This document shows, piece after piece, positions 13,982 to 62,851 of a DNA stretch of 64,000 nucleotides; the stretch's first letter is position 1, and each line of letters opens with the position of its first letter. A model generated the notes under the pieces. It was not told the DNA's origin. It searched no databases and worked only from the letters and a program-made list of their open reading frames with translations. Source of the stretch: Novilysobacter antarcticus. GTDB taxonomy: Bacteria; Pseudomonadota; Gammaproteobacteria; Xanthomonadales; Xanthomonadaceae. The stretch is from NCBI RefSeq assembly GCF_019802285.1, contig NZ_JAIEUJ010000001.1, forward strand, positions 682,001 to 746,000, read 5' to 3'. A program made the position numbers and the translations under genes.

Positions 13982-16738
<2,757 letters not shown>

Positions 16739-36853: not shown

Positions 36854-37239
36854 GGAGGGACCGTCAACTTGCGTGGCGATATCTCGTCTCCTAGATTCAC
36901 TCCAACCACCGTAGCACGGTGCCGGGAAAGGATCAGGTATCCGATCTGGGACTGCAACGCCCTTGGACGGGGCGGCATGGCTGTGCTGTTTGGCAACCGC
37001 CGGTTACCTACCGCGCCATCGCGTACTTCGCAATCTTGGTACTTATTGGGACTGTTGCGATGCAAGAATCCTAAGATATGAGGGGCTCTTTCAATATTTT
37101 TGCTGACAACCCGTTGCCTCGCGTCGAAAGCCCGAAGTGTTGCGCCATCAGACAAGGGCAGCGCAACGGTCTTTCGCTTCTCCGGGCATTCTTTGTCCTG
37201 CTGGTGTTGTGTTACAACTGGAGCCGTAGCCTAGATGCG
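36854..37239. other. Intergenic region at the left edge of the island
   Basis: No convincing gene. It contains the leader of the leftward NifU-like operon, a small inverted repeat CACCGT-AGC-ACGGTG (36907-36921), and from about 37070 a drop in GC that marks the transition to acquired DNA. The short open frame at 37078-37389 shows no recognisable protein. I found no tRNA gene and no second dif-like site here. Confidence 0.6.
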
Positions 37240-37434
37240 CTAAGAGTCACGGAAATCGTCGCATCCGGCGACGAGATTCTCAACACCCGGATCCTTGGAA
37301 TCAGGTCGAGCTACCAGAATCGCTCTCACGCGTCGTTGAGGATTAGCTATTGGGGGGCATCCCAAAGCCAGTCGATGAGCAGCCGGTGAAGGTCCTTGGC
37401 TGGCATTCCGAACCTAATCATCAGGATCTACCAT
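37240..37434 (-). pseudogene. Degenerate copy of a small hsdR-linked gene (copy 1)
   Basis: From ATG 37434, preceded by GGAGAGG, the frame reads MVDPDD and hits TAG at once. The next frame continues RFGMPA...LIDWLWDAP, and after a C6 run the first frame resumes with RRVRAILVARPD and ends LVAGCDDFRDS at 37240. All three pieces match the gene behind hsdR at 44882-45190, which has DPDDRFGMP, LIDWMWESP, KKILVARPD and LVAESDDY in one frame. Two compensating frameshifts and an internal deletion thus separate this copy from the other. Function unknown. Confidence 0.7.
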
Positions 37435-37508: not shown

Positions 37509-38030
37509 TCAGGATGGCGGTCTGGCCTTCCTGATCAGGAAGGCATGTCCACTAGGTAATGTCTCGACGTGTAGAAAGCCGCTGTTTATGAGCACCGCCC
37601 TCATCCCGTCAGAAGCAGGTAACAGACGAGCTCCAATGCGGATACCGCGTTCATCGAGCTGATCGCATAGGAATTTCGTTAGTGCCGTCATGACGCCCTT
37701 CCTACGCTGATTTGGGGCAATCCCGGCCAGCCAAAACTCATTGATCTTCACATCATGGAGATCGAGAACCGTTGTAATTCCGAACCCCGCTTTATCACCG
37801 TCAGCATCCACCATAACTATGCTGGCGGGAACTTCGTTGCCCTTTGAATCAAGCCGCGTATTAGTCGCGGCCATCTTTTGGATGTTTTGCATCAGGCCTG
37901 CGCTCGCGCGCGGATCCAGAAGGCCAGCGTCAAAGTGCCCAGTCGAAACTTCGCTCATGATCAGCTGATGAATGAAGTGACAGTCCTGCGCCCCCAATGC
38001 GGGTCTGAAGCGTACGTTCAAGGCGATCAC
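37509..38030 (-). CDS. GNAT family N-acetyltransferase
   Basis: A 173-residue acetyltransferase beginning at GTG 38030. The acetyl-CoA binding segment EFWLAGIAPNQRRKGVMTALTKFLCDQL (about 97-124) carries the R/Q-x-x-G-x-G/V motif A. Motif B follows in GMRAVLINSGFLHVE near 145. The N-terminal part has the usual FRPALGAQDCHFI start, so the GTG is preferred over the internal ATG at 37958. The substrate is unknown. It is isolated in the island, next to a broken small gene, and could be a resistance, toxin-like or modifying enzyme. Confidence 0.8.
   Translation of the reverse strand: MIALNVRFRPALGAQDCHFIHQLIMSEVSTGHFDAGLLDPRASAGLMQNIQKMAATNTRLDSKGNEVPASIVMVDADGDKAGFGITTVLDLHDVKINEFWLAGIAPNQRRKGVMTALTKFLCDQLDERGIRIGARLLPASDGMRAVLINSGFLHVETLPSGHAFLIRKARPPS
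37525..37544. repeat. Perfect 20-base palindrome
   Basis: GCCTTCCTGATCAGGAAGGC reads the same on both strands without a loop. It lies inside the last codons of the GNAT gene (AFLIRKA). It could be a protein-binding site, or a cruciform/transcription-end signal for the leftward gene, but there is no T-run. Confidence 0.5.
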
Positions 38031-38243
38031 CCTTGGAGAATTGGAATTTAATGGCTGGAAGCTGGACTTGTTATATCACAAGCAAAACCAGGCATGAGAT
38101 GCCGCATACGGTTGCATGAGGCATACACAGCCAGTCACTAAGTAGCCCCACAGAGATCCTTATGCGACACGTCGCAGCGCGGACGACTATATCTGGTCCG
38201 TTTGCCGCTACGCTTTAGAGCCAGAGGCTCAAGAAGCGGCGGC

Positions 38244-38726
38244 ATGACCTGGCAGAACGATTTGAGGCGTACGGCCCGAGACCCCGAACTGGTCGTCAAA
38301 GTCATCGCGGCCGTCGAGCTGCTGCTGGCGCGCGATTCATACCTGTTCGTCCATCGCGTCGGCGAGCGCGCGATCTCCCATCGGTTAGCAATCTACATGG
38401 AGGCACAATTCCCGGGGTGGGACGTCGACTGCGAGTACGACCGCGATGGTGAAGCGCGAAAGATGATTCCTGACGGTTCCGGGGACGACCATGACGAGGG
38501 CAGCGCGGTGTTGCCCGATATCATCGTCCACCATCGTGGGCCGGGTGGAAACCACCTCGTTTTCGAACTCAAAAAGTCCACCAATCGCGAACCGGATGAT
38601 CGGGACCTCGAAAAGTTGCGCGCCTACGGTCGCCACCTGGGCTACGACCACGGCGTCTTCATTCGCTTTGTCGTGGGACGGGCCATGCCCGACGTCAGTC
38701 GGGCGGAGTTCGTATACCCCGATTAA
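38244..38726 (+). CDS. PD-(D/E)xK-like small protein, putative nuclease
   Basis: A 160-residue protein from ATG 38244. The pattern fits the PD-(D/E)xK nuclease fold: a helix with Glu in HRVGERAISHRLAIYME, then a strand LPDIIVHHRG with the Asp, then NHLVFELKKS with the E-x-K. The acidic loop between (DGSGDDHDEGS) is exposed. After the core comes ELKKSTNREPDDRDLEKLRAY and a Tyr-rich tail. No partner methylase lies beside it. Given its place among phage-defence genes it may be a nuclease effector; alternatively it is an orphan of a larger operon. The frame extends upstream only to TTG codons. Confidence 0.6.
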   Translation: MTWQNDLRRTARDPELVVKVIAAVELLLARDSYLFVHRVGERAISHRLAIYMEAQFPGWDVDCEYDRDGEARKMIPDGSGDDHDEGSAVLPDIIVHHRGPGGNHLVFELKKSTNREPDDRDLEKLRAYGRHLGYDHGVFIRFVVGRAMPDVSRAEFVYPD

Positions 38727-38834: not shown

Positions 38835-39851
38835 CTAGAGCGAGTCAACGAGTTGCCTGCAAAGGTCCTTTGCCGAGAAAAAGGTCACGGTGGTCGGCAA
38901 CCGATTCGCCCGGCGGAGCACGTGGATCAGCAGACAAGCCGTATAGATCCAGCCGGTCGCATCATCGTCCGCGTCCGCGTCCAGGACGAGCGCCTTGAAT
39001 CTCTCGGCAACGGGTGGATGGGTATCCACGATCGCCGCTTGCAGGCCGGCCGGCTCCACGTGGGCTATGCAGAACGCCGCGGTCGCGAGCCCCATGATCC
39101 GCTTGTTCAGCACCTGGGAGTAGGGCTCCCCGGTCGTCGCACAGTAGTCGGCCACGTGGTCGAGCAACATGGAGCGCGCATGCACATCACAGGCACGTTC
39201 CTCTTCGACGGTGAGCGGGGGAGCATCGCATTGCGCCGCGAACTGCACGTGGCGCAGCTCGTGGAAGAAGGTCGTCGCCGCGGCGAGGCAGGCGAGATCG
39301 AACGTGGCTTTGCCTATCGGATCCAACGAAGGGTCCGGGCAGGTGCCCGGCAGCGGGATCGTGGCTGGCCATTCCAGCTCGTCCAATTGCTTCGCTTGCC
39401 AAATCAGCCGCGCGAAGTAGGTCGCTTCGTCCATCTGGGACTCGACCGAAGCGACGTCGGCATCCTCGGTGAGATCGTGCACGGAAAGGGGAACGTTCCT
39501 GGCTTGGGCGAGAAGGATGTGGGGGCTGTATGCCGTGAGCGCCTGCATCCCCATCGTCGCGATCACCCAATCGAGCGCGAAGGTTTTGTGCATCCAGCTG
39601 ACACGGTTGCCGTTGGCGCTGATGGCGGCCTCAACGTCGTCTTCCCTGAGATAGAACTCCGGCTTGAACGATTCCCAGCTCTGCCGCATCTCAGCCTCGC
39701 GTTCCGGACAGGCGCCCAACAGAACGTTCTCGACGACGTGCGGGGCAACCGGTTGATACGGGGGCATGAACGTGCACCTTGGGCAATCGGCGTGGAGATG
39801 CCGCATCTGGGCGCGCAAGCTTGACAGACGATCATCGGATTTGACTATCAC
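38835..39851 (-). CDS. Lit-like phage-exclusion metalloprotease (peptidase U49 family)
   Basis: A 338-residue protein resembling E. coli Lit, the protease that cleaves elongation factor EF-Tu when phage T4 Gol peptide appears, aborting infection. The zinc motif HExxH is HELRH at about residues 198-202 (TFFHELRHVQFA), followed by the helix EEERACDVHARSML with a probable third ligand. The N-terminus carries a CPRC pair near residue 23 that is not part of classic Lit. It stands alone on the minus strand, divergent from the Gabija-like pair. The EF-Tu target is inferred from family membership only. Confidence 0.75.
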   Translation of the reverse strand: MIVKSDDRLSSLRAQMRHLHADCPRCTFMPPYQPVAPHVVENVLLGACPEREAEMRQSWESFKPEFYLREDDVEAAISANGNRVSWMHKTFALDWVIATMGMQALTAYSPHILLAQARNVPLSVHDLTEDADVASVESQMDEATYFARLIWQAKQLDELEWPATIPLPGTCPDPSLDPIGKATFDLACLAAATTFFHELRHVQFAAQCDAPPLTVEEERACDVHARSMLLDHVADYCATTGEPYSQVLNKRIMGLATAAFCIAHVEPAGLQAAIVDTHPPVAERFKALVLDADADDDATGWIYTACLLIHVLRRANRLPTTVTFFSAKDLCRQLVDSL

Positions 39852-40186: not shown

Positions 40187-42484
40187 ATGCAGATCCACCA
40201 TTTGGAAATTGCCAATTTCCGCAAGCTTCTATCCGTTCGCGTAGACCTTACCGAAAAAACAACCTTACTAGTTGGTGCCAACAACAGCGGAAAATCATCG
40301 GCAATGCTTGCCCTTCGCAGGTTCCTGGTCTCCAAGCCGGGGGCCTTTCGGAGTCTCGATTTCACCCTGTCCCACTTCGCGAACATCGACCAAATCGGGC
40401 AAGCCTGGGAGCAAGCGTCCAGCGCCGACCCGGTGCCGGCGTCGGAGGACTGGGACGGCTTGTTGCCGATGCTCGATATCTGGATATCCGCCAAACAGGG
40501 CGAGTTGCATCACCTCCGAGACCTCATCCCAAACTTTGCTTGGAAGGGCGGCTTGGTTGGCATGCGATTTCGCCTTCAACCCAAGGATATTGAAGCCCTT
40601 TACAAGGACTACCGGGTCGAGCGCGAGCGCGTCGGAGCCTTGGCGGCAGAGGCAGCCAAGACAAGTAAGGTCGGCGGAAAGCAACTGACGCTATGGCCAG
40701 TTAGTCTCACCGACTATCTCAATCGGCGTCTTGGTGCGCACTTCACGGTTCGCTGGTACCGGCTCAACCCAGCCCTTCTAGTCAACCCTGACTCCGAGAC
40801 TCGAATGGCCCGCCCCCAACCACTGGGGCCGCTGGCTGCGCCGCTCGAGCACAACCCGCTTAACGGGCTTATCCGTGTGCATGAAATCAATGCACAGCGC
40901 GGCTTTGGCGAAGTGGGTTCAGAGGATGCAGACAACGACGAATCGCCCGCCCGGACCGGACGCAAACTCTCCGAACAGTTGCGGACCTATTATCGCCGAC
41001 ACCTCGACCCCGGCGATTCGCCTGATGTGTCGGACCTCGACGCGCTTCGTGCCATCGAGGCAGCGCAGGACTCGTTCGATATGCGCTTGACCACCAGCTT
41101 TCAGCCGGCGCTGAAGGAGGTCGAAGGCCTTGGTTATCCCGGCGCAAATGACCCGAAGATCTGCGTAGCTACTCGGCTGGGTGCCGTTGACGGAATGAAT
41201 CACGAGGCTGCAGTGCTCTTTGAGCTCGATTCGGTCGGGGGAGTGCCGGGCGCCCCACCGCTGCGGCTGCCTGAGAGTTCCAACGGTCTTGGCTACCAAA
41301 ACCTTATTTCCATGATTTTTCGCCTGATGAGTTTCCGGGATGCCTGGCTTCGGAAGAACAAAGCAGCTAACCCTATGACCGACGTCGGCATTGAACCCAT
41401 CCACCTTGTACTCATCGAAGAGCCCGAGGCGCACCTGCACGTGCAAGTCCAGCAGGTTTTCGTCAAACACGCTTACCAAGTGCTGAGACGGGACAAGCTG
41501 CTTGAAGAATTCCCTCACCTTTCCACGCAATTGGTGGTCAGTTCCCACTCAAGCCATGTGGCCCACGAGGTGAACTACGACTGCCTGCGCTATTTCCGCC
41601 GATTGCCGGCTGGTATGAACGGGGTGAGCGTTCCCGTGTCGACCGTGTCAAACCTTTCCCATGTGTTCGGCCAAGGTACTCAGACGAAGGAGTTTGTTAC
41701 CCGCTACCTTCGCGCCCAGCACGCCGATGTGTTTTTTGCCGACGCCATCATCCTGGTCGAAGGCGCAGCCGAGCGGATGGTGCTACCCCACTTTATCCGC
41801 GACCACTTTGGCGTTCTTGACCAGTGCTACATCACGGTGCTCGACATCGGCGGAAGCCACGCGCACCGGCTCAGGCCACTGGTCGACGCACTTGGACTCG
41901 TCACTCTGGTGATTACAGACCTCGATGCCGGGAAGGGCAAGAGCGCGACCCCGGTCCGGCGGAACGTGGGACAGCGGAGCAACAATCCGACCTTGAAGCA
42001 CTGGATGCGTGGACTCAAGCAACCGCCCACTGTTGACGTGTTGCTCAACCTTGCCGACCCCGACAAGGAAGACGAGATCGATGACCTCTTTGCGATTCGG
42101 ATTGCCTACCAGACGCCTATCGCCGTTCCGCTGTCGAAGACCGGCAACACAGAAGAGGGGCTTCCTAACACGTTTGAGGACGCACTCGTTCTTACCAATG
42201 CGGCCCATTTTGAGGGAAAGAACGGTAAGGGTCTGGTACGGCAATTCGCTGGCGCACTCAAAAACAGCGTTGATGCCGATGAGCTCGGCGCTGCTCTGTT
42301 CGATGCCCTTCGAAGTGGCGATAAGGCGGAATTTGCGCTGACGGTGCTCAGCGACCCGGATTTTGGCAGTCTTCAGATGCCTGCCTACATCGAGGAAGGA
42401 CTCACTTGGCTCCAGGAACGACTGCTCAAGAAGCAAAATGAGATTCTGGTCGTGGTGCCCCTGGCGGGGGAGATTCCGACATGA
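40187..42484 (+). CDS. OLD-family ATPase/TOPRIM endonuclease (GajA-like)
   Basis: A 765-residue class 2 OLD nuclease. The N-terminal ABC/SMC-like ATPase has Walker A LVGANNSGKSSAMLAL (about residue 28). The signature and Walker B region are split far downstream: VLIEEPEAHLHVQVQQV (about 410), then the H-loop LVVSSHSSHVAHE (about 450). The C-terminal TOPRIM domain has the Glu in AIILVEGAAERMVLPHF (about 525) and the DxD in LVITDLDAGKG (about 577). GajA of the Gabija defence system has this order but is usually under 600 residues, so this version has a large insertion in the ATPase. AAGGA precedes ATG 40187. It overlaps the helicase gene by four bases. Confidence 0.82.
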   Translation: MQIHHLEIANFRKLLSVRVDLTEKTTLLVGANNSGKSSAMLALRRFLVSKPGAFRSLDFTLSHFANIDQIGQAWEQASSADPVPASEDWDGLLPMLDIWISAKQGELHHLRDLIPNFAWKGGLVGMRFRLQPKDIEALYKDYRVERERVGALAAEAAKTSKVGGKQLTLWPVSLTDYLNRRLGAHFTVRWYRLNPALLVNPDSETRMARPQPLGPLAAPLEHNPLNGLIRVHEINAQRGFGEVGSEDADNDESPARTGRKLSEQLRTYYRRHLDPGDSPDVSDLDALRAIEAAQDSFDMRLTTSFQPALKEVEGLGYPGANDPKICVATRLGAVDGMNHEAAVLFELDSVGGVPGAPPLRLPESSNGLGYQNLISMIFRLMSFRDAWLRKNKAANPMTDVGIEPIHLVLIEEPEAHLHVQVQQVFVKHAYQVLRRDKLLEEFPHLSTQLVVSSHSSHVAHEVNYDCLRYFRRLPAGMNGVSVPVSTVSNLSHVFGQGTQTKEFVTRYLRAQHADVFFADAIILVEGAAERMVLPHFIRDHFGVLDQCYITVLDIGGSHAHRLRPLVDALGLVTLVITDLDAGKGKSATPVRRNVGQRSNNPTLKHWMRGLKQPPTVDVLLNLADPDKEDEIDDLFAIRIAYQTPIAVPLSKTGNTEEGLPNTFEDALVLTNAAHFEGKNGKGLVRQFAGALKNSVDADELGAALFDALRSGDKAEFALTVLSDPDFGSLQMPAYIEEGLTWLQERLLKKQNEILVVVPLAGEIPT

Positions 42485-44364
42485 CGGAGGCGGTCGTAGC
42501 GCTCGACGACAAGGTTGACGAGGGGGCGGATGCCACCATCCGTGAATGCCTCAACCTCTCAACACCCCGCAGCTTCTTTCTTTACGCGGGCGCCGGCTCG
42601 GGTAAGACGCGTTCACTCGTGGAGGCCGTGCGGTACCTGAGGGTACGGGAGCGACAGCGTCTTGTGTTCAAGGCCCAGCGCATCGCCATTATCACGTACA
42701 CCAATGCGGCCTGCGACGAGATTTCCCGCCGATTGGAATTTGACCCACTGGTAGATGTCTCCACCATCCACGCCTTTGCCTGGCGCCTTATCAAAGGATT
42801 TAACACTGACATCCGGGAGTGGGTGCGTAGATCGGTATCCGGAGATATCCAGAAGCTTGACGAACAATTGTCCAAGTCACGGGGTGAGAACAAGACGACC
42901 ATTGCCCGGAGAGAAGAGCGTGGGCGAAAGCAACGCCGCCTTGATCGTCTCGACGATATCCGGCAGTTCATCTACAGCCCTACGGGTGAAAACCGGGGGC
43001 GTGACTCGCTCAACCACAGCGAAGTCATCCAGATGGCGGCCGCCTTTCTGCAAGACCCGCCCCTGCGCGACGTGCTGGTCGACCTCCACCCCGTCTTGCT
43101 CATCGACGAGAGCCAGGACACTAACCGTCACCTTATGGATGCTCTGCTGGCGGTCCAAAAGTCAGCACCGGAGCGGTTCTGCCTTGGGCTCTTTGGCGAC
43201 ACCATGCAGCGCATCTATAACGACGGGAAAGAACGGCTCGAAGACGCTATCTCGGCCGACTGGGCGCGTCCCGCAAAGCGCATGAACTATCGGTGCCCCA
43301 AGCGCGTCGTGCGGCTCATCAACCAGATTCGGGCTGATGTCGATGACCAGGTCCAGCAGCCTCTTGCGGCGAAGATTGAAGGTACTGTCCGACTGTTCGT
43401 GACTGGGCATCGTGCGGAACCCACATTCGAGCTTGAGGAGAGCATTGCCGGGCTGATGGCCCAAGCGTCAGGTGACCAAGCGTGGTGCGAGGGTGAAGCC
43501 AAGCGTAAAACGCTGATTCTCGAACACAAGATGGCCGCGCGGCGCATGGAATTCGAGGGCGTCTTCAGTCCCTTGTATGCCGCCGAACATCTGCGCACGG
43601 GACTGCTCGACGGAACGCTGCCTGGGGTCAAGTTTTTCTTCGAATCGGTGATGCCTATTGTGGATGCGGGTCTTAAGGACGACGGATTTGCACTGGTTGA
43701 CGCCGTGCGTACCCGCTCGCCGCTGCTCGACCTCAAGCTGCTCGCGTCGAGTGAAACGCAGCTCGATCTCTTGGAGAACGCAGGTGCGGCGGCGACTTCA
43801 CTGACCGACTTGTTTAAGGACCGGGACCCGCTTCTCTTTGACGTGGTCGGAGAGCTACTTCGCTCGGCCCTGTTGGACGTCCCGGAATCTATTGGCGCCG
43901 CCTGTACCGCCGGCGTGACTACTGACGACCCGCCTGAAACAACCGACCGCAACCTGCTTGAGGTACATGCCTACCGGAGGGTTCTCGGCGTGAAGTTCTC
44001 GCAGATGAGGCGATTCGCGAACTACGCAGCGGGGCTCTCGCCGTTTGACACGCACCAAGGCGTCAAGGGGCTGGAGTTCCCTCGCGTGATGGTGGTCATC
44101 AGTGATGGGGAAGCCGGCGGCTTCATGTTCAGCTACGAGAAGCTCCTCGGCATCACAGAGCCAACCCCAAGGGATATCGAGAATGAGAACGAGGGTAAGG
44201 ATTCGAGCCTATCGCGCACGCGTCGCCTCCTATACGTGACCTGCAGCCGTGCTGAGGAGAGCTTGGCTCTGGTGGTCTATTCATCCAATCCTGTAGGCGT
44301 GAGAGATTGGGTGGTGCGGGAGGGCTGGTTTGAATCGAAAGAGGTGGTGCTCCTCGACGAGTGA
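42481..44364 (+). CDS. UvrD/PcrA-like superfamily 1 helicase (GajB-like)
   Basis: A 627-residue SF1A helicase. Motifs in order: Walker A YAGAGSGKTRSLVEAV (about 35), Ia AIITYTNAACDEISRRL, Ib STIHAFAWRLI, II LLIDESQDTNRHLMDALL (about 205), III LFGDTMQRIYNDG, IV MNYRCPKRVVRLIN, V THQGVKGLEFPRVMVV (about 525) and VI LLYVTCSRAEESLALVVYS (about 592). All motifs are complete, so it should be an active ATPase. The ATGA overlap with the OLD nuclease gene means the two are made together, the arrangement of Gabija (GajA-GajB), in which the helicase senses DNA ends or termini and the nuclease cuts. It is longer than typical GajB. Confidence 0.82.
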   Translation: MTEAVVALDDKVDEGADATIRECLNLSTPRSFFLYAGAGSGKTRSLVEAVRYLRVRERQRLVFKAQRIAIITYTNAACDEISRRLEFDPLVDVSTIHAFAWRLIKGFNTDIREWVRRSVSGDIQKLDEQLSKSRGENKTTIARREERGRKQRRLDRLDDIRQFIYSPTGENRGRDSLNHSEVIQMAAAFLQDPPLRDVLVDLHPVLLIDESQDTNRHLMDALLAVQKSAPERFCLGLFGDTMQRIYNDGKERLEDAISADWARPAKRMNYRCPKRVVRLINQIRADVDDQVQQPLAAKIEGTVRLFVTGHRAEPTFELEESIAGLMAQASGDQAWCEGEAKRKTLILEHKMAARRMEFEGVFSPLYAAEHLRTGLLDGTLPGVKFFFESVMPIVDAGLKDDGFALVDAVRTRSPLLDLKLLASSETQLDLLENAGAAATSLTDLFKDRDPLLFDVVGELLRSALLDVPESIGAACTAGVTTDDPPETTDRNLLEVHAYRRVLGVKFSQMRRFANYAAGLSPFDTHQGVKGLEFPRVMVVISDGEAGGFMFSYEKLLGITEPTPRDIENENEGKDSSLSRTRRLLYVTCSRAEESLALVVYSSNPVGVRDWVVREGWFESKEVVLLDE

Positions 44365-44500: not shown

Positions 44501-44817
44501 ATGAGCAATACCGACCCCGAAAAGGCCACTAAGCGGGTCGTCGTTTTAATGACCCCGAAGCAAAAAGTCGAGGTCAGCCGCCGCGCGAAATCGGCGCGAT
44601 TATCGTTGAGTGCCTTCATGTGCCGCCAAGCGCTGGGGGACGAAGAGGTGCTCTCGATTGTGGTGAGCGAAATTCGCGCGAATCCACGAGCACCGTGGCG
44701 GCACTCGATCACGCATTGAATAGGCTGGCCGAAGCGCAAGCGTCCCAGCCAGAACGCAACGAGCAAGCTCGCGCCAGGGCGAGGGCGGAGTTCGCTCAGT
44801 TGGGCCTGGTGAGTTGA
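44501..44817 (+). pseudogene. Frameshifted ribbon-helix-helix (MobC-like) small protein
   Basis: From ATG 44501 (CAGGAG nine bases before) the frame encodes KRVVVLMTPKQKVEVSRRA, then LSLSAFMCRQALGDEEVLSI, an RHH-type fold of the kind found in MobC-like relaxosome or antitoxin proteins. It then drifts into RANPRAPWRHSITH and stops at 44719. The -1 frame takes over near 44685 with a helical tail STVAALDHALNRLAEAQASQ that ends at 44817 and fits the family better. A one-base change in the 44650-44690 region would join them. It may be a true pseudogene or a truncated but functional DNA-binding protein. Confidence 0.6.
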
Positions 44818-44881: not shown

Positions 44882-45190
44882 CTAGACAGCCAGATAGTCA
44901 TCGGACTCTGCAACCAGCTTCAACACCACGCTGCCTTCAGCATCCGGTCTTGCCACCAAGATCTTTTTCACTTCAGCGATTTGCTCATTGCTCGGGATCA
45001 GCTCGGCTGGCGATTCCCACATCCAGTCGATGAGAACCTCGGAGAGGCTTTCCGCAGGCTATTCCGCAACCTCTTCCCGGGTTGGTACATACATTCCCGA
45101 CCGGATCGTTGAGTTGTCGACCCCATAGGATTCACGTGCCGCACGATACGCGCTTTCAGGCATTCCGAATCTGTCATCAGGATCGGTTAT
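44882..45190 (-). pseudogene. Small gene behind hsdR with lost start and in-frame amber codon (copy 2)
   Basis: Seven bases after the hsdR stop, GAGG is followed by ATA where copy 1 at 37434 has ATG. The frame then reads TDPDDRFGMPESAYRAARES ... PTREEVAE, meets TAG at 45061-45059, and continues in the same frame as PAESLSEVLIDWMWESPAEL ... KKILVARPDAEGSVVLKLVAESDDYLAV to a stop at 44882. Restored, it would be about 102 residues and translationally coupled to hsdR. The start codon change and the stop both look like decay. Family unknown. Confidence 0.65.
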
Positions 45191-45197: not shown

Positions 45198-48100
45198 TCA
45201 GATGTCAGTCGGGGAGGTGGTGGGGTAGGCGCTGGTGCCTGCGCCAAAGTAGTGGTCGTACACGTGAGAGTACGCCCGTGCGAGCTTCTCGGTACGGATG
45301 TCTCTGGTGTAAGGCTCGGGTAGCCGGCGCATCTTGAGCTTCAGTGTTTGCATCACCGCGGCGCGGGCTTGCTGCTTTTCGCGCCAGTCCAGCACCAGCA
45401 TCTCGCGTTTCAATGTCTCCAGCAGTTCGCGGCAGACTTTTTTGACCTCGGCTTCCTCTTTCTTGGTCAGCATCGGCGCGGGCTTGGTCAAAATATCGAA
45501 GATCGCGAGCTCCTCTTCACTGAGGCGTTCGACGATGTGCCGCTTCTCCTCCTGGGTCAAAGCAACAGCCATGCCTTTGAGGTCTGCAAACAGCTCCTCG
45601 ATGTTCTTGCTCCCGGCGTTGTAGTCGTCAATGATCTTCTGGAACTTCTCGGCAAAGTCGCTGCGCGACGGGTTCAACCGCAGCATTTCCGCGAGCTTGC
45701 CTTCGATCAGGCGCCGCAGCTTCTCGGCTTCGGTGTGCTTGCGGCCGGTAGCAAATTTCTCTTGCAGTGCGTCGAAATCGATCTCGGACAGATTGATCAG
45801 TGCTTCGGCACGACTGATCGGGCCTATGTGATAGCCCTCGGTCGCGATCGAGTCGTTCAGGAGCGACTCGATGTCGCCCATTACCGCAGAGATTTCTGGC
45901 TGCTCCGTCTCCGCCCTGATCTTGGCCGCCAGATAGACCACCAGAATTGCTATCGGCGCCAGTTCATTGGCCATCGGGTCCGGCAGTATCGCCTTGAACA
46001 AGCGCGCCACCCGACCCGCCAACTGCACGTAGCGCTTCTTGTCCTCATCGGTGCGCAGGATCGCTTCGATGGCGTCGTCAATGCGGCCGATCCGCTCAAA
46101 CCCTTGTGATCGCGCCACCGCCGGCAACTCCACACCACGCGCTTCGCAGAAGCGCTGCGCTTCCTCCAGCGCCTCGCGCAGGGCGGCTACCAGCAACGTC
46201 TTCGTCTCGATCGGGTCGCTGGTCTCGCCATTGTTGCCAGGCTTGGTCTTGGCGTAGATCGCCAACGCCTTCTGCAACGCACGGAAGATGCCGACGTAAT
46301 CGACGATCAGGCCGGATTCCTTGCCCGGCGCGACTCGGTTGGCCCGGGCGATGGTTTGCATCAGCGTGTGCGCCCGCATCGGCTTGTCGAGGTAGATCGT
46401 CGAACAGGTCGGCACATCGAAGCCGGTGATCCACATCGCGCATACAAACACCAGGCGCAGTTCGCCGTCGGGCTTCTTGAACGACTCGGCCAGATCCTCC
46501 TTGAGCATGCGTTGCCTATGCGGCGTGATGTCTAGACCTTTGGCCTGGAGGTCCTCGACCTCGTTTTGTCCCTGCGAGACCACCACCGCCATATCGGTGC
46601 TCTCCATCAGCCGAATGCGCGCGATCAGCCGCTCGCGGTCGTCGCCTTGGGTCGCCGCGGCCAGTGCCGACTTCAGACGCGTAGTTTCGGCCTGCCAGTG
46701 CGCCTGTACCTTGTCGTACATCCGCACGGCCGTCGCCTTGTCGATGCAGATCATCATCGCCTTGCCGCGGTAGCCGCGGCCGGTGAAATGGGCGACAACA
46801 TCCTTGGCGATGGCGTCCAGGCGCTCCTCGCGGGTGATGACGTGGTACTCACGGGCGAACTCCCGCTCCAGCTTCTTTTCCTGCGCCTCGTCCAGCTCGG
46901 CGTCTTCCAGCAGGTTCTCCAAGTCGCGGTTGAGGTCCTGATTGGTGAGCTGTACCTCGGGAATGCGGTTCTCGTAGTACAAGGGCACCGTCGCGCCGTC
47001 CTCGATCGAGCGGGCGAAATCGTAAACGCTGACGTAGTCGCCGAACACTTCGCGGGTGCGCTCCTCCTCGCCGGCGATCAGCGGCGTGCCGGTGAAGCCA
47101 ATGAATCCGGCGTTAGGGAGTGCGTTGCGCATGTTGAGCGCGAAGATGTCGTATTGGCTGCGGTGCGCCTCGTCGGTGATGACGATGACATCCGAGCGCT
47201 CGGAAAGGACGGGGTAGGGCTGCCCAGCCTCGGTCCGGAACTTCTGAATCAGGGTGAAGATGTAGCGTTCGTTACCACGCAGCATCTCCTTTAGGTGTTC
47301 GCCGCTGGTGGCGCGCACGTCCTCGCGAGTGGTCGCACCGGTCGCCTTGAAGGTCTTGCTGATCTGGTCGTCCAGCTCCTCGCGGTCGGTGACGACAACA
47401 AAGCTCCAGGTGCCGGACAGGGTGCGCAGGATCTTCTGGGTGAAGAATACCATCGACAGCGACTTGCCTGAGCCCTGCGTGTGCCAGAACACACCGAGGC
47501 GCTTGCGTTCGACCTTGTTGGACGCGCGCAGCTCCACCAGCCGGGCGATGGCCTTGTTGACGCCGAGGAACTGGTGGTTCCTCGCCGTCTTTTTGATCAG
47601 GCCGCCTTTGCCTTCCTCGAATACGGTGAAGTTTTCGATGTAGTCCAACAACCGGGGCGGCTCCATCAAGCCGCGAAGCGCTCGCTCCAACGACACTTTT
47701 CCGGTCTCGCCTTCGTCGTCGACACGCTTCCAATCGGAGAAGTGTTCCCACGCGCTGGTCAACGTGCCAATGCGCGTGTCGGACCCGTTGGACAACATGA
47801 TGAAGGCATTGGGATGGAACAACTGCGGAACGGACTGGCCGCGGTAGTCGCGCAAGTTGTCATCGAAGGCGCTGCGCAGTGGTACCGACGGCTTCTTGAG
47901 CTCGATGAACACCAGCGGCAGGCCGTTGACGAACGCCAGCAAGTCGCAGCGACGGCGGTACATGTCGCCGGCGACCCACATCTGCGAAGTCAGCAGGTAG
48001 TCGTTGTTGGCCGGCAGCGTCCAGTCGATTACTCGCAGCACTTCGGTGCTGTGACCGCCGTGCTCATCGGGGATTGTCACCTTCACGCCGTCCTTGATCA

Positions 48101-48413
48101 GACTGTAGAGCTCACGGTTGGCGTTGACCGGGATTTTCTTGCTGCGATCCTGGGTGATCTGCTGGATGGCCTGGGCATAGGCGTCGTCGGGAAAGCCGGG
48201 ATTCAAACGTCGCAGCGCCGCCCGCAGGCGGCGCGTGAGGATTACCTTATGCTCACTCTCGCGCCCCTCAGTGCCGTGCTCTCCAAAGGACTCGGCGAAC
48301 AGGTTGCGGTGCTCCCAACCCAGCTCGGTCAGCAACTCAATCGCGGGCTGTTCGACCAGCATCAGCTCGCCATAACCCGCGGGAATATCGCCGAGTGGAT
48401 TGCGCGGGGTCAT
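45198..48413 (-). CDS. hsdR: Type I restriction enzyme, R (endonuclease/translocase) subunit
   Basis: A 1071-residue motor subunit. The N-terminal nuclease domain has the PD-(D/E)xK pattern CDLLAFVNGLPLVFIELKKP (about 155-175). The superfamily 2 translocase has Walker A HTQGSGKSLSMVFF (about 310), DEAH-type box VIVITDEAHRSQYD (about 415), motif III GFTGTPLI, and motif VI QTIARANRVAPGK near 695. The C-terminal helical domain that binds the methylase core completes the protein. It overlaps hsdS by four bases. Target cutting needs HsdM and HsdS. Confidence 0.96.
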   Translation of the reverse strand: MTPRNPLGDIPAGYGELMLVEQPAIELLTELGWEHRNLFAESFGEHGTEGRESEHKVILTRRLRAALRRLNPGFPDDAYAQAIQQITQDRSKKIPVNANRELYSLIKDGVKVTIPDEHGGHSTEVLRVIDWTLPANNDYLLTSQMWVAGDMYRRRCDLLAFVNGLPLVFIELKKPSVPLRSAFDDNLRDYRGQSVPQLFHPNAFIMLSNGSDTRIGTLTSAWEHFSDWKRVDDEGETGKVSLERALRGLMEPPRLLDYIENFTVFEEGKGGLIKKTARNHQFLGVNKAIARLVELRASNKVERKRLGVFWHTQGSGKSLSMVFFTQKILRTLSGTWSFVVVTDREELDDQISKTFKATGATTREDVRATSGEHLKEMLRGNERYIFTLIQKFRTEAGQPYPVLSERSDVIVITDEAHRSQYDIFALNMRNALPNAGFIGFTGTPLIAGEEERTREVFGDYVSVYDFARSIEDGATVPLYYENRIPEVQLTNQDLNRDLENLLEDAELDEAQEKKLEREFAREYHVITREERLDAIAKDVVAHFTGRGYRGKAMMICIDKATAVRMYDKVQAHWQAETTRLKSALAAATQGDDRERLIARIRLMESTDMAVVVSQGQNEVEDLQAKGLDITPHRQRMLKEDLAESFKKPDGELRLVFVCAMWITGFDVPTCSTIYLDKPMRAHTLMQTIARANRVAPGKESGLIVDYVGIFRALQKALAIYAKTKPGNNGETSDPIETKTLLVAALREALEEAQRFCEARGVELPAVARSQGFERIGRIDDAIEAILRTDEDKKRYVQLAGRVARLFKAILPDPMANELAPIAILVVYLAAKIRAETEQPEISAVMGDIESLLNDSIATEGYHIGPISRAEALINLSEIDFDALQEKFATGRKHTEAEKLRRLIEGKLAEMLRLNPSRSDFAEKFQKIIDDYNAGSKNIEELFADLKGMAVALTQEEKRHIVERLSEEELAIFDILTKPAPMLTKKEEAEVKKVCRELLETLKREMLVLDWREKQQARAAVMQTLKLKMRRLPEPYTRDIRTEKLARAYSHVYDHYFGAGTSAYPTTSPTDI

Positions 48414-49582
48414 GGGGTGGTGGCCTCCGGTTCGGGGAGTTCGGACACGTCCAGTTCGCCGGAAATGAGTTTGGGAAGAAGCAGGTCACGTGTTGCGCGC
48501 AGGTTGAGGTTCTTCCGGACCAACGTGGTGATCTGTTGCAGCAGCGGGGTTACGCATTTCTCAAAGCGAGCTAAAACATCGTTGGAGGGCAACAGTACTG
48601 GCATTTCCGATAACACATCCCAGTTGATCGTCGGCATCTTCATTCCCCCGGAATGTTGAATGGCCCAAGACACGGTCTCGTCAGCGAAGGCGGTGCTGAA
48701 CAGAAATGCCGGTCCAAACTCCCCCTTATTCTCAAATATGTGAACTGACACGTTAGAAACTCCGTCAAAAGGTGCGAGTAGTACCTTGTGAAAGTTTGGA
48801 CGGATTGCGCCGAAAAGAACCTCACCCTGGCGGAAGATCAGCCGAGAGGTCTTTATTTCATCGGATAGTCCCACCCCTAACAGTGAGTTAGACCGCCGTG
48901 GAATGCGCGACAGGTCAATCAAGGGAAGCGACGAGTGAAGTGAATCTGTGTAACGCTCGGTTTTCTTCTTGGCAACATCGCCAAATGAGCCGCGGCGCCA
49001 TCCCTCTGGGAGAGGACCTAACGCAGACTCCGCAGTCCGCACGTTCTCGTGGCCTGGAAAGCGGAAGCTGACAAACCACTCGCTGTAGATGCGTCTAACC
49101 ATCTCCTCCATGATCGCAATTCGCTGCGTATTGTTTTCAATCAGGTCGTCATAGGCGGATAGGATGTAAACAATTTTTTCTTGACGAGGCAGTGTTGGCA
49201 GCTTGATCTCAATGCCATTGAGGATCGTTAAAGTTAGGAACTTTGTAGCCGCGCCCGTCGAAATTGACCGAAGGTGTTCGAGCTGGACCTGTAGCGCATA
49301 ATAGAGATACCTGTTTAACAGCACTTTCTTATCTAACGACTCAATGACATAAGTCCTTTGATAAGCATCAAATCGACCCGAAAAATACTTAATAGGGTAG
49401 ATGCCGTTGGCATTGTTGCCGGCCAGCAACACGCACTCGGTGTCGAACGAATAAGTATCAGTTCGATACGTTTCTTGAGAGCAAGTAAAAAACGGATACG
49501 CCCCGCTAGGATTTGCGGCGTTTGAATTCAGCTTCCCCGTGCGAAAGGATACGAGCCCACCGAGGTTATGGACTGAAGTCAC
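48410..49582 (-). CDS. hsdS: Type I restriction enzyme, S (specificity) subunit
   Basis: A 390-residue target-recognition subunit with the two-domain layout. TRD1 covers about residues 1-120. The first conserved helix [28 protein letters not shown] follows (about 129-155). TRD2 starts at [19 protein letters not shown] (about 195), and the second helix runs [22 protein letters not shown] near 335. TRDs are among the most variable sequences, so the recognised DNA cannot be read. Base composition is clearly more AT-rich than the flanking core genes. It overlaps hsdM and hsdR by four bases each. Confidence 0.94.
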
Positions 49583-51138
49583 GCCTGCGCCTCCAGAAGG
49601 TCGCTGACGTTTTGACCGATTCTTTCTTGAAGCTCAATTGACTCAACGTTGAGTTGCGCTAGCTCTTCGTTCAACTCTGCCAGACGTTCGACGAAAATAA
49701 ACTCATCCGGCATCCGCTCACCGATCCCGACATAGCGTCCGGGGTTAAGGCTCCAGTTCTTCGCTTCGATTTCGGCGAGGGTGGCTGCCTTGCACAGGCC
49801 CGCCACATCTTCGTAGGATCTCTCGGGGAACCGCTTTTTTAGCAACTCGCTGCTGTCTAACTCGAATTCCGGTGCCTCGGCGCGATAAAGCCGGACGACG
49901 TTGGATATGAACTCCAAATGTTGCGGCGTGAATTCGCGCACGGAGCGGGTGACTTGCTTGAAAAACGGTCGTGCATCAAGGAACAGCACTCGATCCTTGC
50001 GCGCCTTCGGCTTGCCCTTGTCCAAGAACCATAGGGTGCAGGGCAGGGTGACGGTATAGAAGAAGTTTGAGCCGACGCTTACGATGACGTCTACTGCGCC
50101 AGACTCGATCAGTTTTTTGCGGATTTCCAACTCACTGCCACGCGCATCGCCGGCGGAGTTGGCCATCACGAACCCAGCGCGACCCTTTGCATTGAGCGCG
50201 CTGTGGAACAGTTGGATCCACAGGTAGTTGGCGTTGTTAGTGCTGGGCAAGCCGAGCGGAAAGCGCGGGTCGTCAATGAGCCGGTCCTTGTCCACCCCTG
50301 AGACGTTGAACGGCGGATTAGCCATGACGAAGTCGAAGCGGCCCAGGCCATTTTCGGCAACTGCATTGTGGGGGTCTTCGTAGTAGGTGTTGGACTCGCG
50401 GATGTCACCAGATAGGCCATGCACGGCGAGGTTCATCTTGGCCAGTTTGACGGTGTCGCTGGCCTTTTCGGTGCCGTAAACGGTCAGCTCGCGCGTGGCC
50501 GATTTGTGGTGGCGCTGCACAAACGCCGCCGACTGCACAAACATGCCGCCTGAGCCGCAGGCCGGGTCGAAGATGCGGCCATGGAACGGCTGCAGGATCT
50601 CGACGATCAGGCGAACGATGCTGGTCGGGGTGTAGAACACGCCACCCTTTTGCCCTTCCTTCATCGCGAAATTGCCAAGGAAGTACTCGTAGACCTTGCC
50701 GAAGGCGTCGCCTTCAAGGTCCAAAGGCGCCAGCAGGCGCAACAGCTCGGTCAGGGTGGCGTTGGGGAGTTTGTTGTAGGCACGGGGCAGGACGCCTTTC
50801 AATTCCTCATTGCTGGCCTCCACCAGCGTCATGGCCGTGTTGATGGCGCGGCCCAGGTTGTCGCCTTCGGTGAGCGTGAGCAGATACGAGAACCGCGCTT
50901 GCTCGGGCAGGAACATCACGCCTTCGGCCTGGTAGTCCATTGGCTCCAGTTCGTCGGCATCAAGCCCTGCGGTCCTCAACTTGGCGGTGGTCTCGATGAA
51001 TCGCATGTCTGCGAAGCGCAGGAAAATCAACCCCAGAACCGGCGTGGAGAACTCCGCCGGCTTCAGGCTAGTGTTGGCCCAAAGCTGGTCTGCGGCCGCC
51101 CACAGGCGGTTCTCTACTGCGACAAGGTCTGCTGCCAT
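49579..51138 (-). CDS. hsdM: Type I restriction enzyme, M (adenine-N6 methyltransferase) subunit
   Basis: A 519-residue methylase. The AdoMet motif I is [16 protein letters not shown] (about 190) and the catalytic motif IV is [11 protein letters not shown] (about 275), the NPPF form of N6-adenine methylases. The N-terminal helical domain begins [21 protein letters not shown]. The C-terminal coiled helix that pairs with HsdS is present. It is first in the hsdM-hsdS-hsdR operon, with ATGA overlaps at both joints. A small XRE-type regulator gene lies 126 bases upstream on the same strand. Confidence 0.96.
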
Positions 51139-51264: not shown

Positions 51265-51489
51265 TTACAGCCCGGCGTCGCTCATCAGGCTGGCAATTGT
51301 GATGTCCAAGCCTTCCGCCACCCGGCGCATCGTCTGCAATGTGACGTTCCGCTCTCCTCGTTCGATGGAACTGAAGTACGCCCTGTGCATCCCAATGGCG
51401 TCCGCAAAAGTGTCCTGACTGTGACCAGATGCCAGCCGACGCTTCCGCACCGCACCCCCTAACTTTCGCTGTAGCGATATCTCATCCAT
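51265..51489 (-). CDS. Small XRE-family regulator, controller-protein-like
   Basis: A 74-residue helix-turn-helix protein consisting only of the DNA-binding domain. The HTH is at about residues 20-65 (SGHSQDTFADAIGMHRAYFSSIERGERNVTLQTMRRVAEGL). Size and fold match the C proteins that time restriction-modification expression, though these normally serve type II systems. It lies upstream of hsdM on the same strand and has a palindrome in the spacer behind its start (51534-51546). Control of the hsd operon is inferred. Confidence 0.8.
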   Translation of the reverse strand: MDEISLQRKLGGAVRKRRLASGHSQDTFADAIGMHRAYFSSIERGERNVTLQTMRRVAEGLDITIASLMSDAGL

Positions 51490-51571: not shown

Positions 51572-51946
51572 ATGACTTGGCTTCTCATTGACACAGAATC
51601 CGACATCGTGGTCGAAATTCCAGCCACCGCGCTCCCCCCGGAGACGGTCAGGACACAATGGGAGCGGTTGGGCGATGACGAGGCGAAGGAGGCGTTCGGA
51701 CAGAAACTTGGCGAACTTCTCGAATCGTCACTGATCGATTGTCTGGATAGCGATCTAAAGCCCCCCACTGCAGCGCAAACGTCTTATGCGATCGCTATCG
51801 CCAAGAGGCTCGGCGTGCCGGCCTCGGCGGAAGTGTTCAGATTTCGCAACGTAATGACTCACTTTTTGAGAGAACATGCGCCTGTGTTCAAAGCTCTTGC
51901 TACCAGCTCCTCCAAAACTCGCCCGAGGAAAATCGGGACAGAGTAG
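51572..51946 (+). CDS. Hypothetical protein
   Basis: A 124-residue protein from ATG 51572. It contains TWLLIDTESDIVVEIPATAL, then an amphipathic stretch EAKEAFGQKLGELLESSLIDCL, and a Lys/Arg-rich end. A later segment PPTAAQTSYAIAIAKRLGVP ... FRFRNVMTHFLREHAPVF resembles short DUF3072-like or SAP-like helices that bind DNA, but only weakly. It diverges from the XRE regulator and shares its operator region, and it converges on the recombinase helper gene. I do not recognise a family. Confidence 0.6.
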   Translation: MTWLLIDTESDIVVEIPATALPPETVRTQWERLGDDEAKEAFGQKLGELLESSLIDCLDSDLKPPTAAQTSYAIAIAKRLGVPASAEVFRFRNVMTHFLREHAPVFKALATSSSKTRPRKIGTE

Positions 51947-51951: not shown

Positions 51952-52437
51952 TTACTTCTGCCTGCGTGGAAGGAGCGACTCCACCTCAGCTTCCGGCAGT
52001 GCACCCAATTGCGCCAGCTGGTCCCTTGAACTGCGGTACGACTCATAGAACTGTGCCCATTTGCTAAAGCCACCCAGCTCGCCAACGGCACGGATCATCG
52101 CGACGTGGGATGCCGTTAGAATAGCGACCTGGGATTCGAGCGCGGCGATGCGCACGTCACGATCTGCCAGTGCGCTGGCAGCGGCGACACCGGATAGCTT
52201 GCCTGGCCTGCCACGCCAGCGACGGAACTCGGCTTGACGCTTCTGGTACTCGTCCAAGAGCCGGCTGCGATCTTTGCTGCGGGTAATCGATGAGGCGGCA
52301 TTTATCCGTGGATGCAGTCGTGCAACTGCCCGTGCGGTGATGTCCTCGTCGCGGGCGAGGAGGTCGTCCAGCACTTGGCGCATCTCGGGATCAGGATCGA
52401 GATCGGATGTGCGTTGTTCCAAGGTGTCGTTATCCAT
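51952..52437 (-). CDS. Small helical accessory protein of the recombinase module (TnpC/DUF6262-like)
   Basis: A 161-residue charged, mostly helical protein. The N-terminal half has DEDITARAVARLHPRINAASSITRSKDRSRLLDEYQKRQ, resembling the helix-turn-helix start of small proteins that accompany Tn554-type recombinases. A likely coiled coil follows at about 85-120 (ALADRDVRIAALESQVAIL). Its start overlaps the end of the third recombinase gene by eight bases, so it is the last gene of that operon. In Tn554, the small TnpC modulates transposition; the equivalence is inferred from size and order. Confidence 0.65.
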   Translation of the reverse strand: MDNDTLEQRTSDLDPDPEMRQVLDDLLARDEDITARAVARLHPRINAASSITRSKDRSRLLDEYQKRQAEFRRWRGRPGKLSGVAAASALADRDVRIAALESQVAILTASHVAMIRAVGELGGFSKWAQFYESYRSSRDQLAQLGALPEAEVESLLPRRQK

Positions 52438-54757: not shown

Positions 54758-56268
54758 GACTGCGAACCTTCGAGCTCAGCCACCACCGCCTGCACTTCGG
54801 CGATCGTCCGCTCAAGCTGTAGATAGGCGGGCGAAGCCGCATCGCCACGAGATGAGTCATGGAAGAACCGCGCCACACCTCGAAAGTCGGATAGAACTTT
54901 CGAGTGCATCTGAACGTCGTGAATCGGCATGAACTTCCTGCAGCCATAGCAGGACAAGATTGGGTTGTAGGGGCACGCAGCCTGCCCGGATGTGCACCCT
55001 CCGATCCCGGCGATCGGCACACCATGCGGCGCTCCGCCGATCTGCTGTGATTCCTTCAATTGCGCGAGCTCTTCGTGACCAATAAAGCGGTCGTGGGCAA
55101 TACGAGCCACGCGCTGGTAGATCTCTGAGATCCCCAGTGCCTTGTTCACTCGCTCAGCCTGGTTGGCCGATGTTTCGTAGTACACGAGTGCGGTAGTTGT
55201 GTCGGAGTGCCCGAGGAACTCGGCCAGTTCCTCATGGCTTGCGCCTGCGTCGACGAGGCGCTGGGCGGCTGTATGTCGTAGGTGCACGGCAGAAGCTCGC
55301 CCTTCAACGAGACTACTAAGAAGCGATGCAATACGCAGGCTCGCCTCGGTGGTGGACTTCATTCCGAACGCTTTGGCGCCCATATCTTGGTTGCTCGCCC
55401 GCGCTCGTAGGTTTACCTGCGCGAGTATGGGTGTCCACTCGCGCTTTACGCGCCGTTGCAGTGGTCTAGTGGCCGTCGCCGTTCGTTGCTTCACCATGTG
55501 AAAGGTAAGGTGGACCGTCCGAAAGTCCTCTAATGGATCGTTGCGAACTCGTATGTCTCGCAATGTCAGCATCGCAATCTGGATAGGACGCATCCCAAAC
55601 TGGTAACAACATAGAAGCATCGCCGCATCTCGCAGGTCATCATCATCGATCGACGCTTTGGCGGACCTCAATGCGGTCTCGTTAAGAAATCTGACGACCG
55701 CCGCTTCGTCATTTGCAGATATGAAAGCATTTCCAGAGCGGACGGACGAATATTTATCCAGAAACGGGAGAGGAAGGGCGGAGATCATGCCAAGATATGA
55801 CTCGTTCCAACCTCCAATTCTATACTTGCACAACACTCGAAGGAAGGTCTTCAGGCACAGATACACATCTCTCTGAAGTGCGCGCGAACTTAGGGTTACC
55901 CAGTGCGACTGAACTTTTGTCGGCCCTCCTCCGAGAAAGTTTCCGACATCGCTTGCATCCAGGCGAATTCCTGCCTGTATGTATGAGGAAGCAGTTCGTG
56001 CCGCAAGGTCTTCCGCCAGCAGGTATATGAATGCGTGCTTGAGCAAGAATGCCAAATGCTCCGAGGCTGAGTCGAACGAGAGAGTAGAAACCAGGCCATT
56101 GGCGCGCACTGAAAACCGCTTGGTGCTGGATGGATCCCGTATAGAACGTTGTTGGTCCGCGTAGTTGTCGTAGTACCTAACTACAGAGGGGAGGGGAGGG
56201 AGTTGAGAGACGATGTCACGTAAAGCCCGCCCACCAGGCAATTGATGGTGCGTGCGCAAGTTGGTCAT
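54754..56268 (-). CDS. Tyrosine recombinase (second of trio)
   Basis: A 504-residue recombinase. The first catalytic Arg is in CYQFGMRPIQIAMLTLRD (about 230). The HxxR appears as VHLRHTAAQRLVDAG (about 335), followed by LAEFLGHSDTTTALVYYET with the His and the nucleophile Tyr. A Cys cluster lies near the end (IGGCTSGQAACPYNPILSCYGCRKF). I prefer the ATG at 56268, which has CAGGAG seven bases upstream, to the ATG at 56382; the latter lies inside the first recombinase gene and lacks a good ribosome binding site. Confidence 0.82.
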   Translation of the reverse strand: MTNLRTHHQLPGGRALRDIVSQLPPLPSVVRYYDNYADQQRSIRDPSSTKRFSVRANGLVSTLSFDSASEHLAFLLKHAFIYLLAEDLAARTASSYIQAGIRLDASDVGNFLGGGPTKVQSHWVTLSSRALQRDVYLCLKTFLRVLCKYRIGGWNESYLGMISALPLPFLDKYSSVRSGNAFISANDEAAVVRFLNETALRSAKASIDDDDLRDAAMLLCCYQFGMRPIQIAMLTLRDIRVRNDPLEDFRTVHLTFHMVKQRTATATRPLQRRVKREWTPILAQVNLRARASNQDMGAKAFGMKSTTEASLRIASLLSSLVEGRASAVHLRHTAAQRLVDAGASHEELAEFLGHSDTTTALVYYETSANQAERVNKALGISEIYQRVARIAHDRFIGHEELAQLKESQQIGGAPHGVPIAGIGGCTSGQAACPYNPILSCYGCRKFMPIHDVQMHSKVLSDFRGVARFFHDSSRGDAASPAYLQLERTIAEVQAVVAELEGSQS

Positions 56269-56290
56269 CAAATGGCTCCTGGCAGCATGC

Positions 56291-57616: not shown

Positions 57617-57644
57617 AGTTCGCATAATGCATATTATGTAAATA
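57617..57644. other. dif-like XerCD recombination site
   Basis: The left arm and centre, TTCGCATAATGCATA, differ by one base from the 15-base core TTCGCATAATGTATA, which I recall as the attachment/dif core used by Xanthomonas filamentous phages. The right arm reads TTATGTAAATA against the usual TTATGTTAAAT, so the XerD side is off by one missing T. It may be the chromosomal dif, a hybrid att site left by a dif-using element, or the crossover site of the adjacent recombinase trio. Confidence 0.6.
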
Positions 57645-57715
57645 GAACGGCGGCCATCCGTCGCGTCCTGTCCGAATGGCAGTCGTTACCCCTCGATCGA
57701 TGGGCGCGTTGTGGT

Positions 57716-60130: not shown

Positions 60131-60240
60131 GAGGCTCTCTCAGGCGTGGACTGGAATGGGCAACTTACGGCGCGGGAAGTGAAACGGGCATCAATTGCAG
60201 CGACGGCGAAACAAGGTTACGTGCCGCTCCCGCGCGGCTT

Positions 60241-62721: not shown

Positions 62722-62851
62722 GGGCGCTCGGTTCCGGGATGCGCTTGGTCCGCCAGTTTTGCCGGGATATTGGAGGTTGCTCCAACCATGGCTCGGGGGG
62801 CGCATATGCAACGTGATGCGCGAGACCGGTCCGACGTGCGTGAACCTCGCT

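What the first reader, a model, noticed from the sequence alone, without database searches (positions are those of the whole stretch)
37240..37434. Second, independently broken copy of the same small gene at the island's left end
The copy at 37240-37434 has DPDD, RFGMPA, LIDWLWDAP, ILVARPD and LVAGCDD in three frame segments, separated by a stop and a C6 run. It is in the same orientation as the copy at 44882-45190, so the pair bracket the GNAT-Lit-Gabija segment. This suggests the segment arrived by recombination between copies, or that the gene is costly and repeatedly lost.
Basis: seen in the sequence. Interest (0 to 1): 0.6.

Follow-up and report, generated by a model that had tools for sequence, protein, structure and literature searches.

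The report
Decayed accessory genes in a GInt
Two decayed copies of a small gene that elsewhere travels beside DNA-recombining enzymes lie inside a 20-kb mobile island packed with antiviral genes and inserted at the chromosome's terminus site; they look like scars of how the island was assembled.

Summary
In detail: 37240-37434 (A) and 44882-45190 (B) are decayed, same-orientation copies of one ~102-aa gene (alignment score 85; shuffle maximum 39). Their lesions differ. Both lie inside a GInt (ginABCD recombinase island) of about 20.6 kb, 37027-57624, inserted at the chromosomal dif site: the site stands where the island is missing in two relatives, occurs once in the genome, and shares its core pattern with E. 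coli dif. Cargo: type I R-M, Gabija, Lit, a PD-Lambda-3_A-like gene. A lies ~200 bp inside the left end; B just behind hsdR, beside another broken gene.

Of 12 open relatives in the order sample, 7 follow a TnpS-like recombinase divergent from a KfrA_N protein, 3 lie at orf2 beside ginABCD, 2 stand alone. In the window the place between orf2 and ginD is empty.

Best reading: A and B are relics of earlier mobile-element layers captured as cargo; the moving unit is the whole GInt. Entry of the A-B segment by recombination between copies is disfavoured. The gene is decayed in 5 of 17 loci, so dispensable; cost is not shown. Function is inferred from position only. GInts at dif were not found in the papers searched.

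The parts
37240..37434 (-). Copy A: decayed small gene (frameshifts, nonsense codon, about 35 codons missing)
44882..45190 (-). Copy B: decayed small gene (in-frame TAG at codon 44, ATA at the start position), seven bases behind the hsdR stop
37027..37032 (+). Left junction of the GInt: last bases shared with the empty site (TACTTCGCA), short repeat TTCGCA
57617..57644 (+). Right junction: dif-type site, 111 bases from the ginA start
   Evidence: E. coli dif core compared
56291..57508 (-). ginA: tyrosine recombinase (Phage_integrase)
54754..56382 (-). ginB: tyrosine recombinase (Phage_integrase)
52430..54757 (-). ginC: large recombinase-like protein (weak Phage_integrase match)
51952..52479 (-). 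ginD-like small protein
   Evidence: 41-43% identity to the corresponding gene of G1060 and G1135
51572..51946 (+). orf2: the small gene follows its relative in G1060 and G1135, but here nothing lies between orf2 and ginD
51265..51489 (-). Short helix-turn-helix gene (XRE-type by eye) divergent from orf2
   Evidence: frame read by eye; the XRE of G1060 gave no tblastn match here
45198..51138 (-). Type I restriction-modification genes hsdR, hsdS, hsdM
44502..44816 (+). Second broken gene beside B (ribbon-helix-helix-like by eye, frameshifted)
40190..44364 (+). Gabija gajA and gajB
38835..39824 (-). Lit-like peptidase
38202..38726 (+). PD-Lambda-3_A-like gene
37509..38030 (-). GNAT acetyltransferase, upstream of copy A

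Best explanation
A and B are pseudogenes of one small (about 102 aa), acidic, helical protein family that mostly sits in the gene sets of tyrosine-recombinase mobile elements. They lie inside a GInt of about 20.6 kb that entered the chromosome at dif. GinABCD (by homology) cut and join at dif-like ends. The cargo was built up by successive captures, and A and B are remnants of recombination modules of earlier elements left at the seams: A near the left end behind GNAT, B between the Gabija block and the hsd block beside another broken gene. The place the gene has in two other GInts, between orf2 and ginD, is empty here. Shown: homology, decay, the gin genes, the dif-type site and two sites without the island. 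Inferred: that the copies mark separate acquisition events, and that the intact protein assists or regulates its recombinase.
For: Homology of A and B. Of 12 open family loci in the order sample, 7 lie directly behind a TnpS-like tyrosine recombinase divergent from a KfrA_N protein, 3 at orf2 beside gin genes (G1060, G1135, G1139), 2 alone. A 4-bp overlap with the recombinase stop is present in all 8 named loci checked (Rhodanobacter, Solimonas, Castellaniella). Of 5 genomes with GinC among 398 of the order, 4 (the window's own included) also carry the small gene, against 8 of 393 others (Fisher p 2.4e-6; 3 of the 4 are one genus). GInt: three Phage_integrase matches plus ginD. Two relatives carry the dif-type site where the island is missing. 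The site occurs once in the genome, GC skew is on balance positive left and negative right of it, and its core pattern is that of E. coli dif. The G1135 GInt has the same type of site 104 bases from its ginA start, against 111 in the window. Another broken gene lies beside B.
Against: No recombinase remnant was found beside A or B (best is a 35-aa match at E 0.004 inside hsdR, taken as chance). A's best-scoring partner among 14 family members is B (80.0; next 65.5), and the alignment runs on about 20 bases past the stops, which a duplication inside the island would also give. Some relatives stand alone without a recombinase (L012, L018, G1082, Xanthomonas fragments). No GinC match in 8 named genomes with the small gene (no positive control in that search). 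Of the three other intact GinC islands only G1135 shows a dif-type site; none in the stretches fetched for G1060 and G1139. A third relative with the same left flank, G1038, shows neither the site nor the right-flank gene in 19.9 kb. GC skew is negative in the 4-kb bins starting at 16001 and 20001, left of the site.
Confidence: 0.58

Rival explanations
1. The small gene duplicated inside this island and both copies then decayed, so the pair records an internal duplication and not two acquisitions.
For: A's best-scoring family partner is B (80.0 against 65.5 for the next of 14); both are minus-strand; the alignment runs about 20 bases past the stops.
Against: Only 136 of 177 aligned bases match, no shared lesion, different upstream genes, and no longer repeat of the flanks.
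Confidence: 0.22
2. The GNAT-Lit-Gabija block entered by recombination between copies of the small gene.
For: The copies are in the same orientation and bracket the block.
Against: Divergence and separate lesions make a recent exchange unlikely; two relatives lack the whole GInt; no relative with a single copy at that place was found.
Confidence: 0.08
3. The gene is costly, for example because it acts on recombination or on a host factor, and is inactivated by selection wherever it lands.
For: 5 of 17 loci in the order sample are decayed: A, B, one copy in G277, one in G1133 split by an insertion with a 5-bp duplication, and a fragment in G1096. All 10 Xanthomonas plasmid records matched only in part.
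Against: 12 of 17 are open; two genomes keep two open copies each (G105, G283); drift in a dispensable gene gives the same picture.
Confidence: 0.12

Closest known systems
GInt, genomic island with three integrases (ginABCD; Bardaji et al. 2017, PMC5385486: abstract and Results section read, main text word-searched)
   Same: Three tandem recombinase genes plus a small ginD at one end, variable cargo that often includes restriction-modification systems, related genomes without the island.
   Different: Inserted at dif; the targets named in the part read are an ABC transporter gene, ssb and a ribonucleotide reductase gene, and the word dif does not occur in its main text. Carries orf2 and a short HTH gene before ginD and two decayed small-gene copies.
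TnpS/TnpT resolution module of Tn3-family transposons (PMC7157771, passages read)
   Same: Most open small genes follow a tyrosine recombinase divergent from a second DNA-binding protein, the TnpS/TnpT layout; that recombinase is 34% identical to the protein annotated as Tn4401 resolvase.
   Different: A third small gene overlaps the recombinase by 4 bp. No direct comparison with TnpS and TnpT of Tn4651 was made. Beside A and B no such module is left.
IMEX elements that use host XerC/XerD to enter dif (PMC5357621 and PMC9765430, passages read)
   Same: Insertion at dif with a good site at one end and a degenerate one at the other.
   Different: This element carries its own ginABCD recombinases. 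Whether Xer is used was not tested.

Membership tests
GInt | ginABC (three recombinase genes) followed by small ginD in one row | tested here: met
   GinA and GinB above the Pfam cut-off, GinC below it (E 9.4e-4, 19.4 bits against 27.1) but 52-53% identical to GinC of G1060 and G1135; ginD-like gene 41-43% identical to theirs
GInt | gin genes at one end, then cargo, then a far end | tested here: met
   layout
GInt | short AT-rich far end | tested here: inconclusive
   37030-37240 is 51.7% G+C, the whole GInt 57.8%; conserved AT-rich stretches were not tested
GInt | imperfect direct repeats of 10-17 bases at the ends and empty sites in relatives | tested here: inconclusive
   Sites without the island seen in 2 relatives; only six identical contiguous bases (TTCGCA) shown as a repeat
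GInt | excision as a circle requiring all four gin genes | not testable with these tools
   needs PCR and mutants
dif-inserted element | insertion at the chromosomal dif site at the terminus | tested here: met
   single match in the genome, overall change of sign of GC skew, though noisy, same core pattern as E. coli dif
IMEX | integration by host XerC and XerD | not testable with these tools
   needs xer mutants
small-gene family (no Pfam or NCBIfam match) | sequence homology over the conserved words DPDDRFGM, YVPTR-EVA, WMWESP-ELIP | tested here: met
   B: 51-63% identity to the 12 other rows; A: partial, E 2.1e-5 when only its region was searched, E 0.0017 over the whole genome
TnpS/TnpT module | divergent tyrosine recombinase and helper beside A or B | tested here: not met
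   no recombinase or KfrA_N remnant beside either copy; the module is seen only beside relatives elsewhere

The most novel reading that the evidence does not exclude
The small acidic protein is an accessory factor shared by two different tyrosine-recombinase systems (GInt ginABCD and TnpS/TnpT-like modules) that regulates strand exchange or its direction, and some GInts (2 of the 4 intact GinC islands seen here) have made the chromosomal dif site their home. Decayed copies then record how defence islands at dif are assembled layer by layer.
Probability: 0.2. Interest if true: 0.65.

Novelty: new variant of a known kind. Interest (0 to 1): 0.42.

Why it matters
Defence genes cluster in islands, but how they come together is seldom visible. 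Here a GInt at dif holds genes of four kinds of defence system, with decayed copies of a recombination-module gene at two places in the cargo. If the small protein acts with tyrosine recombinases, a family without a name gets a testable role. GInts at dif would also mean that elements with their own recombinases, not only Xer-exploiting ones, use the dimer-resolution site. The two broken copies alone would be a minor matter.

Tried and rejected
Rejected: chance matches. Rejected: a tRNA-linked island (no tRNA found in the window). Not found: recombinase remnants beside A or B. Weak small-gene hits in G141, G180 and G190 (E about 0.001 to 0.002) were dropped before counting: G180 and G190 were read and I saw no such gene; G141 was not fetched and matches the same query span as G180. 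G957 (E 9e-4) was not examined. No relatives among phage records or, by the two short patterns used, in the viral collection; apart from the window's own genome, none in 369 genomes of the class and one weak hit in 398 of the phylum. The rows shown suggest that these two samples hold few genomes of the window's order. No Pfam or NCBIfam match for an intact member. Structure of an intact member: mean pLDDT 80.5, five helices and no strand of three or more residues; no PDB match at E 0.001 or better; best VIA-align Z 5.3 over 73 residues, rmsd 2.8, not informative for a helical protein. The left-end DNA has only a 20-base match, E 0.39, in the other loci. GinC search in 8 named genomes: none, no positive control. 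Papers (held library only): GInts with dif and XerC, 0 papers; four terms with GInt and dif site, 0; three tyrosine recombinases with dif, 2 papers, of which PMC9703825 (passages) has dif only in its reference list and the other was seen as a listing only; the word dif is absent from the main texts of PMC5385486 and PMC10214605.

Full report
Observation. Copies A (37240-37434) and B (44882-45190) lie on the minus strand and are homologous: local DNA score 85 against mean 25.6, s.d. 3.7, maximum 39 in 500 dinucleotide shuffles. A has a frameshift after codon 6, lacks about 35 codons of the middle, has a nonsense codon after LIDWLWDAP and changes frame again before ILVARPD. B has one in-frame TAG (codon 44), and its first codon is ATA. 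I see no shared lesion. The genome has no further match.

The island. In two relatives of the same genus (G1042 and G1037; 10 genomes searched, 4 with the left-flank gene including the window's own) the left flank, matched up to window 37032 in G1042 and up to 36936 in G1037, is followed by the site TTCGCATAATGCATATTATGTA and then by the gene found at window 62875. G1037 has about 0.8 kb of other DNA before the site. The fourth genome, G1038, shows neither site nor right-flank gene in the 19.9 kb fetched. The same site stands once in the window, at 57619, and once in the whole genome at up to 2 mismatches. It fits dif: the pattern CGCATAATGNNNATTATG also matches E. coli K-12 beside hipA (that this place is dif is recalled). 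GC skew is positive to the left (0.0172 over window 1-37026; 0.0249 at 660-680 kb of the contig) and negative to the right (-0.0281 over window 57640-64000; -0.0079 at 748-768 kb), but noisy: the 4-kb bins starting at 16001 and 20001 are negative. Beside the site are three tandem genes with Phage_integrase matches (the third, GinC, weak) and a small gene with 41-43% identity to the corresponding gene of other islands: the ginABCD set of GInts (PMC5385486; abstract and Results read). The element therefore runs from about 37027 to about 57624 (20.6 kb). Catalase and ligD (57719-62811) lie outside it and are absent between the site and the next gene in G1042 and G1037.

Cargo. Type I hsdR, hsdS and hsdM, gajAB, Lit, a PD-Lambda-3_A-like gene and a GNAT gene. 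A lies about 200 bp inside the left end. Seven bases lie between the hsdR stop and B, and next to B is a frameshifted gene, ribbon-helix-helix-like by eye.

The small-gene family. It has no Pfam or NCBIfam match. Relatives: 6 of 299 genomes of the order with the single protein and 15 of 398 with the alignment, of which I dropped 3 weak ones, leaving 12 including the window's own. Outside Lysobacterales there are Solimonas (Nevskiales) and a Castellaniella bin (Burkholderiales), and among plasmids 13 records: 3 full-length in Rhodanobacter, 10 partial in Xanthomonas.

Neighbours. Of the 12 open loci, 7 lie directly behind a tyrosine recombinase of about 387 aa that is divergent from a KfrA_N protein (G105 twice, G283 twice, G210, G1133, G090), 3 lie at orf2 beside gin genes (G1060, G1135, G1139) and 2 have neither (G277, G1082). 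In 8 named loci checked, the recombinase stop overlaps the small gene's ATG by 4 bp in all 8. This is the layout described for TnpS/TnpT (PMC7157771, passages), but I did not compare it with Tn4651's own proteins. In G1060 and G1135 the gene lies between orf2 and ginD; in G1139 it lies behind orf2 on the ginA side. The window has an orf2 homologue (35-38% identity) next to ginD with no small gene between them. Among the 398 genomes (same n and same handles, taken as the same draw), 5 have GinC at E 1e-20 or better, one of them (G1045) in two pieces with stops; 4 of these 5 carry the small gene, against 8 of 393 others (Fisher p 2.4e-6; three of the four are one genus, so not independent). The G1135 GInt has a dif-type site 104 bases from its ginA start, against 111 in the window. 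In the stretches fetched for G1060 and G1139 none was found.

Decay. One search lists 23 places. Without the 3 weak ones, and with the pieces of G277 (three) and G1133 (two) merged, 17 loci remain: 12 open and 5 decayed (A, B, one in G277, one in G1133, a fragment in G1096). In G1133 the gene is split by about 38 kb with matching inverted ends and a 5-bp duplication, next to a 1027-aa protein that resembles Tn3 transposases by eye (not scanned). The gene is dispensable in many hosts; cost is not shown.

Interpretation. Exchange between A and B as the route of entry is disfavoured: 136 of 177 aligned bases match with many gaps, similarity past the gene is limited to about 20 bases behind the stops, and two relatives lack the whole GInt. 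A's best-scoring partner is B (80.0 against 65.5), so an internal duplication is not excluded. The best reading is that both are remnants of recombination modules of earlier mobile layers, left at seams of the cargo. The intact protein is acidic (pI 4.6) and predicted helical, with no informative structural match. A role as an accessory to tyrosine recombinases is inferred from position alone.

Defence neighbours of relatives (10 proteins scanned, 5 with a match). G1135's GInt region carries SIR2 and HerA; L012 (Oleiagrimonas) has a PDC-S65/SIR2-type gene nearby; G1060 has an IetA-like gene; L020 (Xanthomonas) has part of a PDC-S06 gene.

Noticed in passing
57719-62811: Long catalase and ligD genes lie just right of the dif-type site but are absent between that site and the next gene in G1042 and G1037: a second variable block at dif.
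   Followed up: no
44502-44816: Frameshifted ribbon-helix-helix-like gene beside copy B; one relative (39% over 54 aa, E 8.5e-8) near a small-gene fragment on a Xanthomonas plasmid, L023.
   Followed up: partly
L059 and L060 (G1133): A small gene is split by about 38 kb with matching inverted ends and a 5-bp target duplication, as Tn3-family insertions make.
   Followed up: partly
L018:6001-6540: In Pseudoxanthomonas kaohsiungensis an open small gene lies about 215 bp from a dif-type site; no GinC match in that genome (no positive control).
   Followed up: partly
L020:7253 and L025:11253: A dif-like (plasmid Xer-type) site lies about 1.1 kb from the small-gene fragment on Xanthomonas sequences.
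   Followed up: no
L051:5478-6243 (G1037): About 0.8 kb with a gene that looks by eye like a glutathione S-transferase fills the place left of dif in a relative.
   Followed up: no
L056:5482-6591 (G1139): The XRE, orf2 and small-gene set lies on the ginA side of the gin operon, not after ginD, as if a second element abutted it.
   Followed up: no
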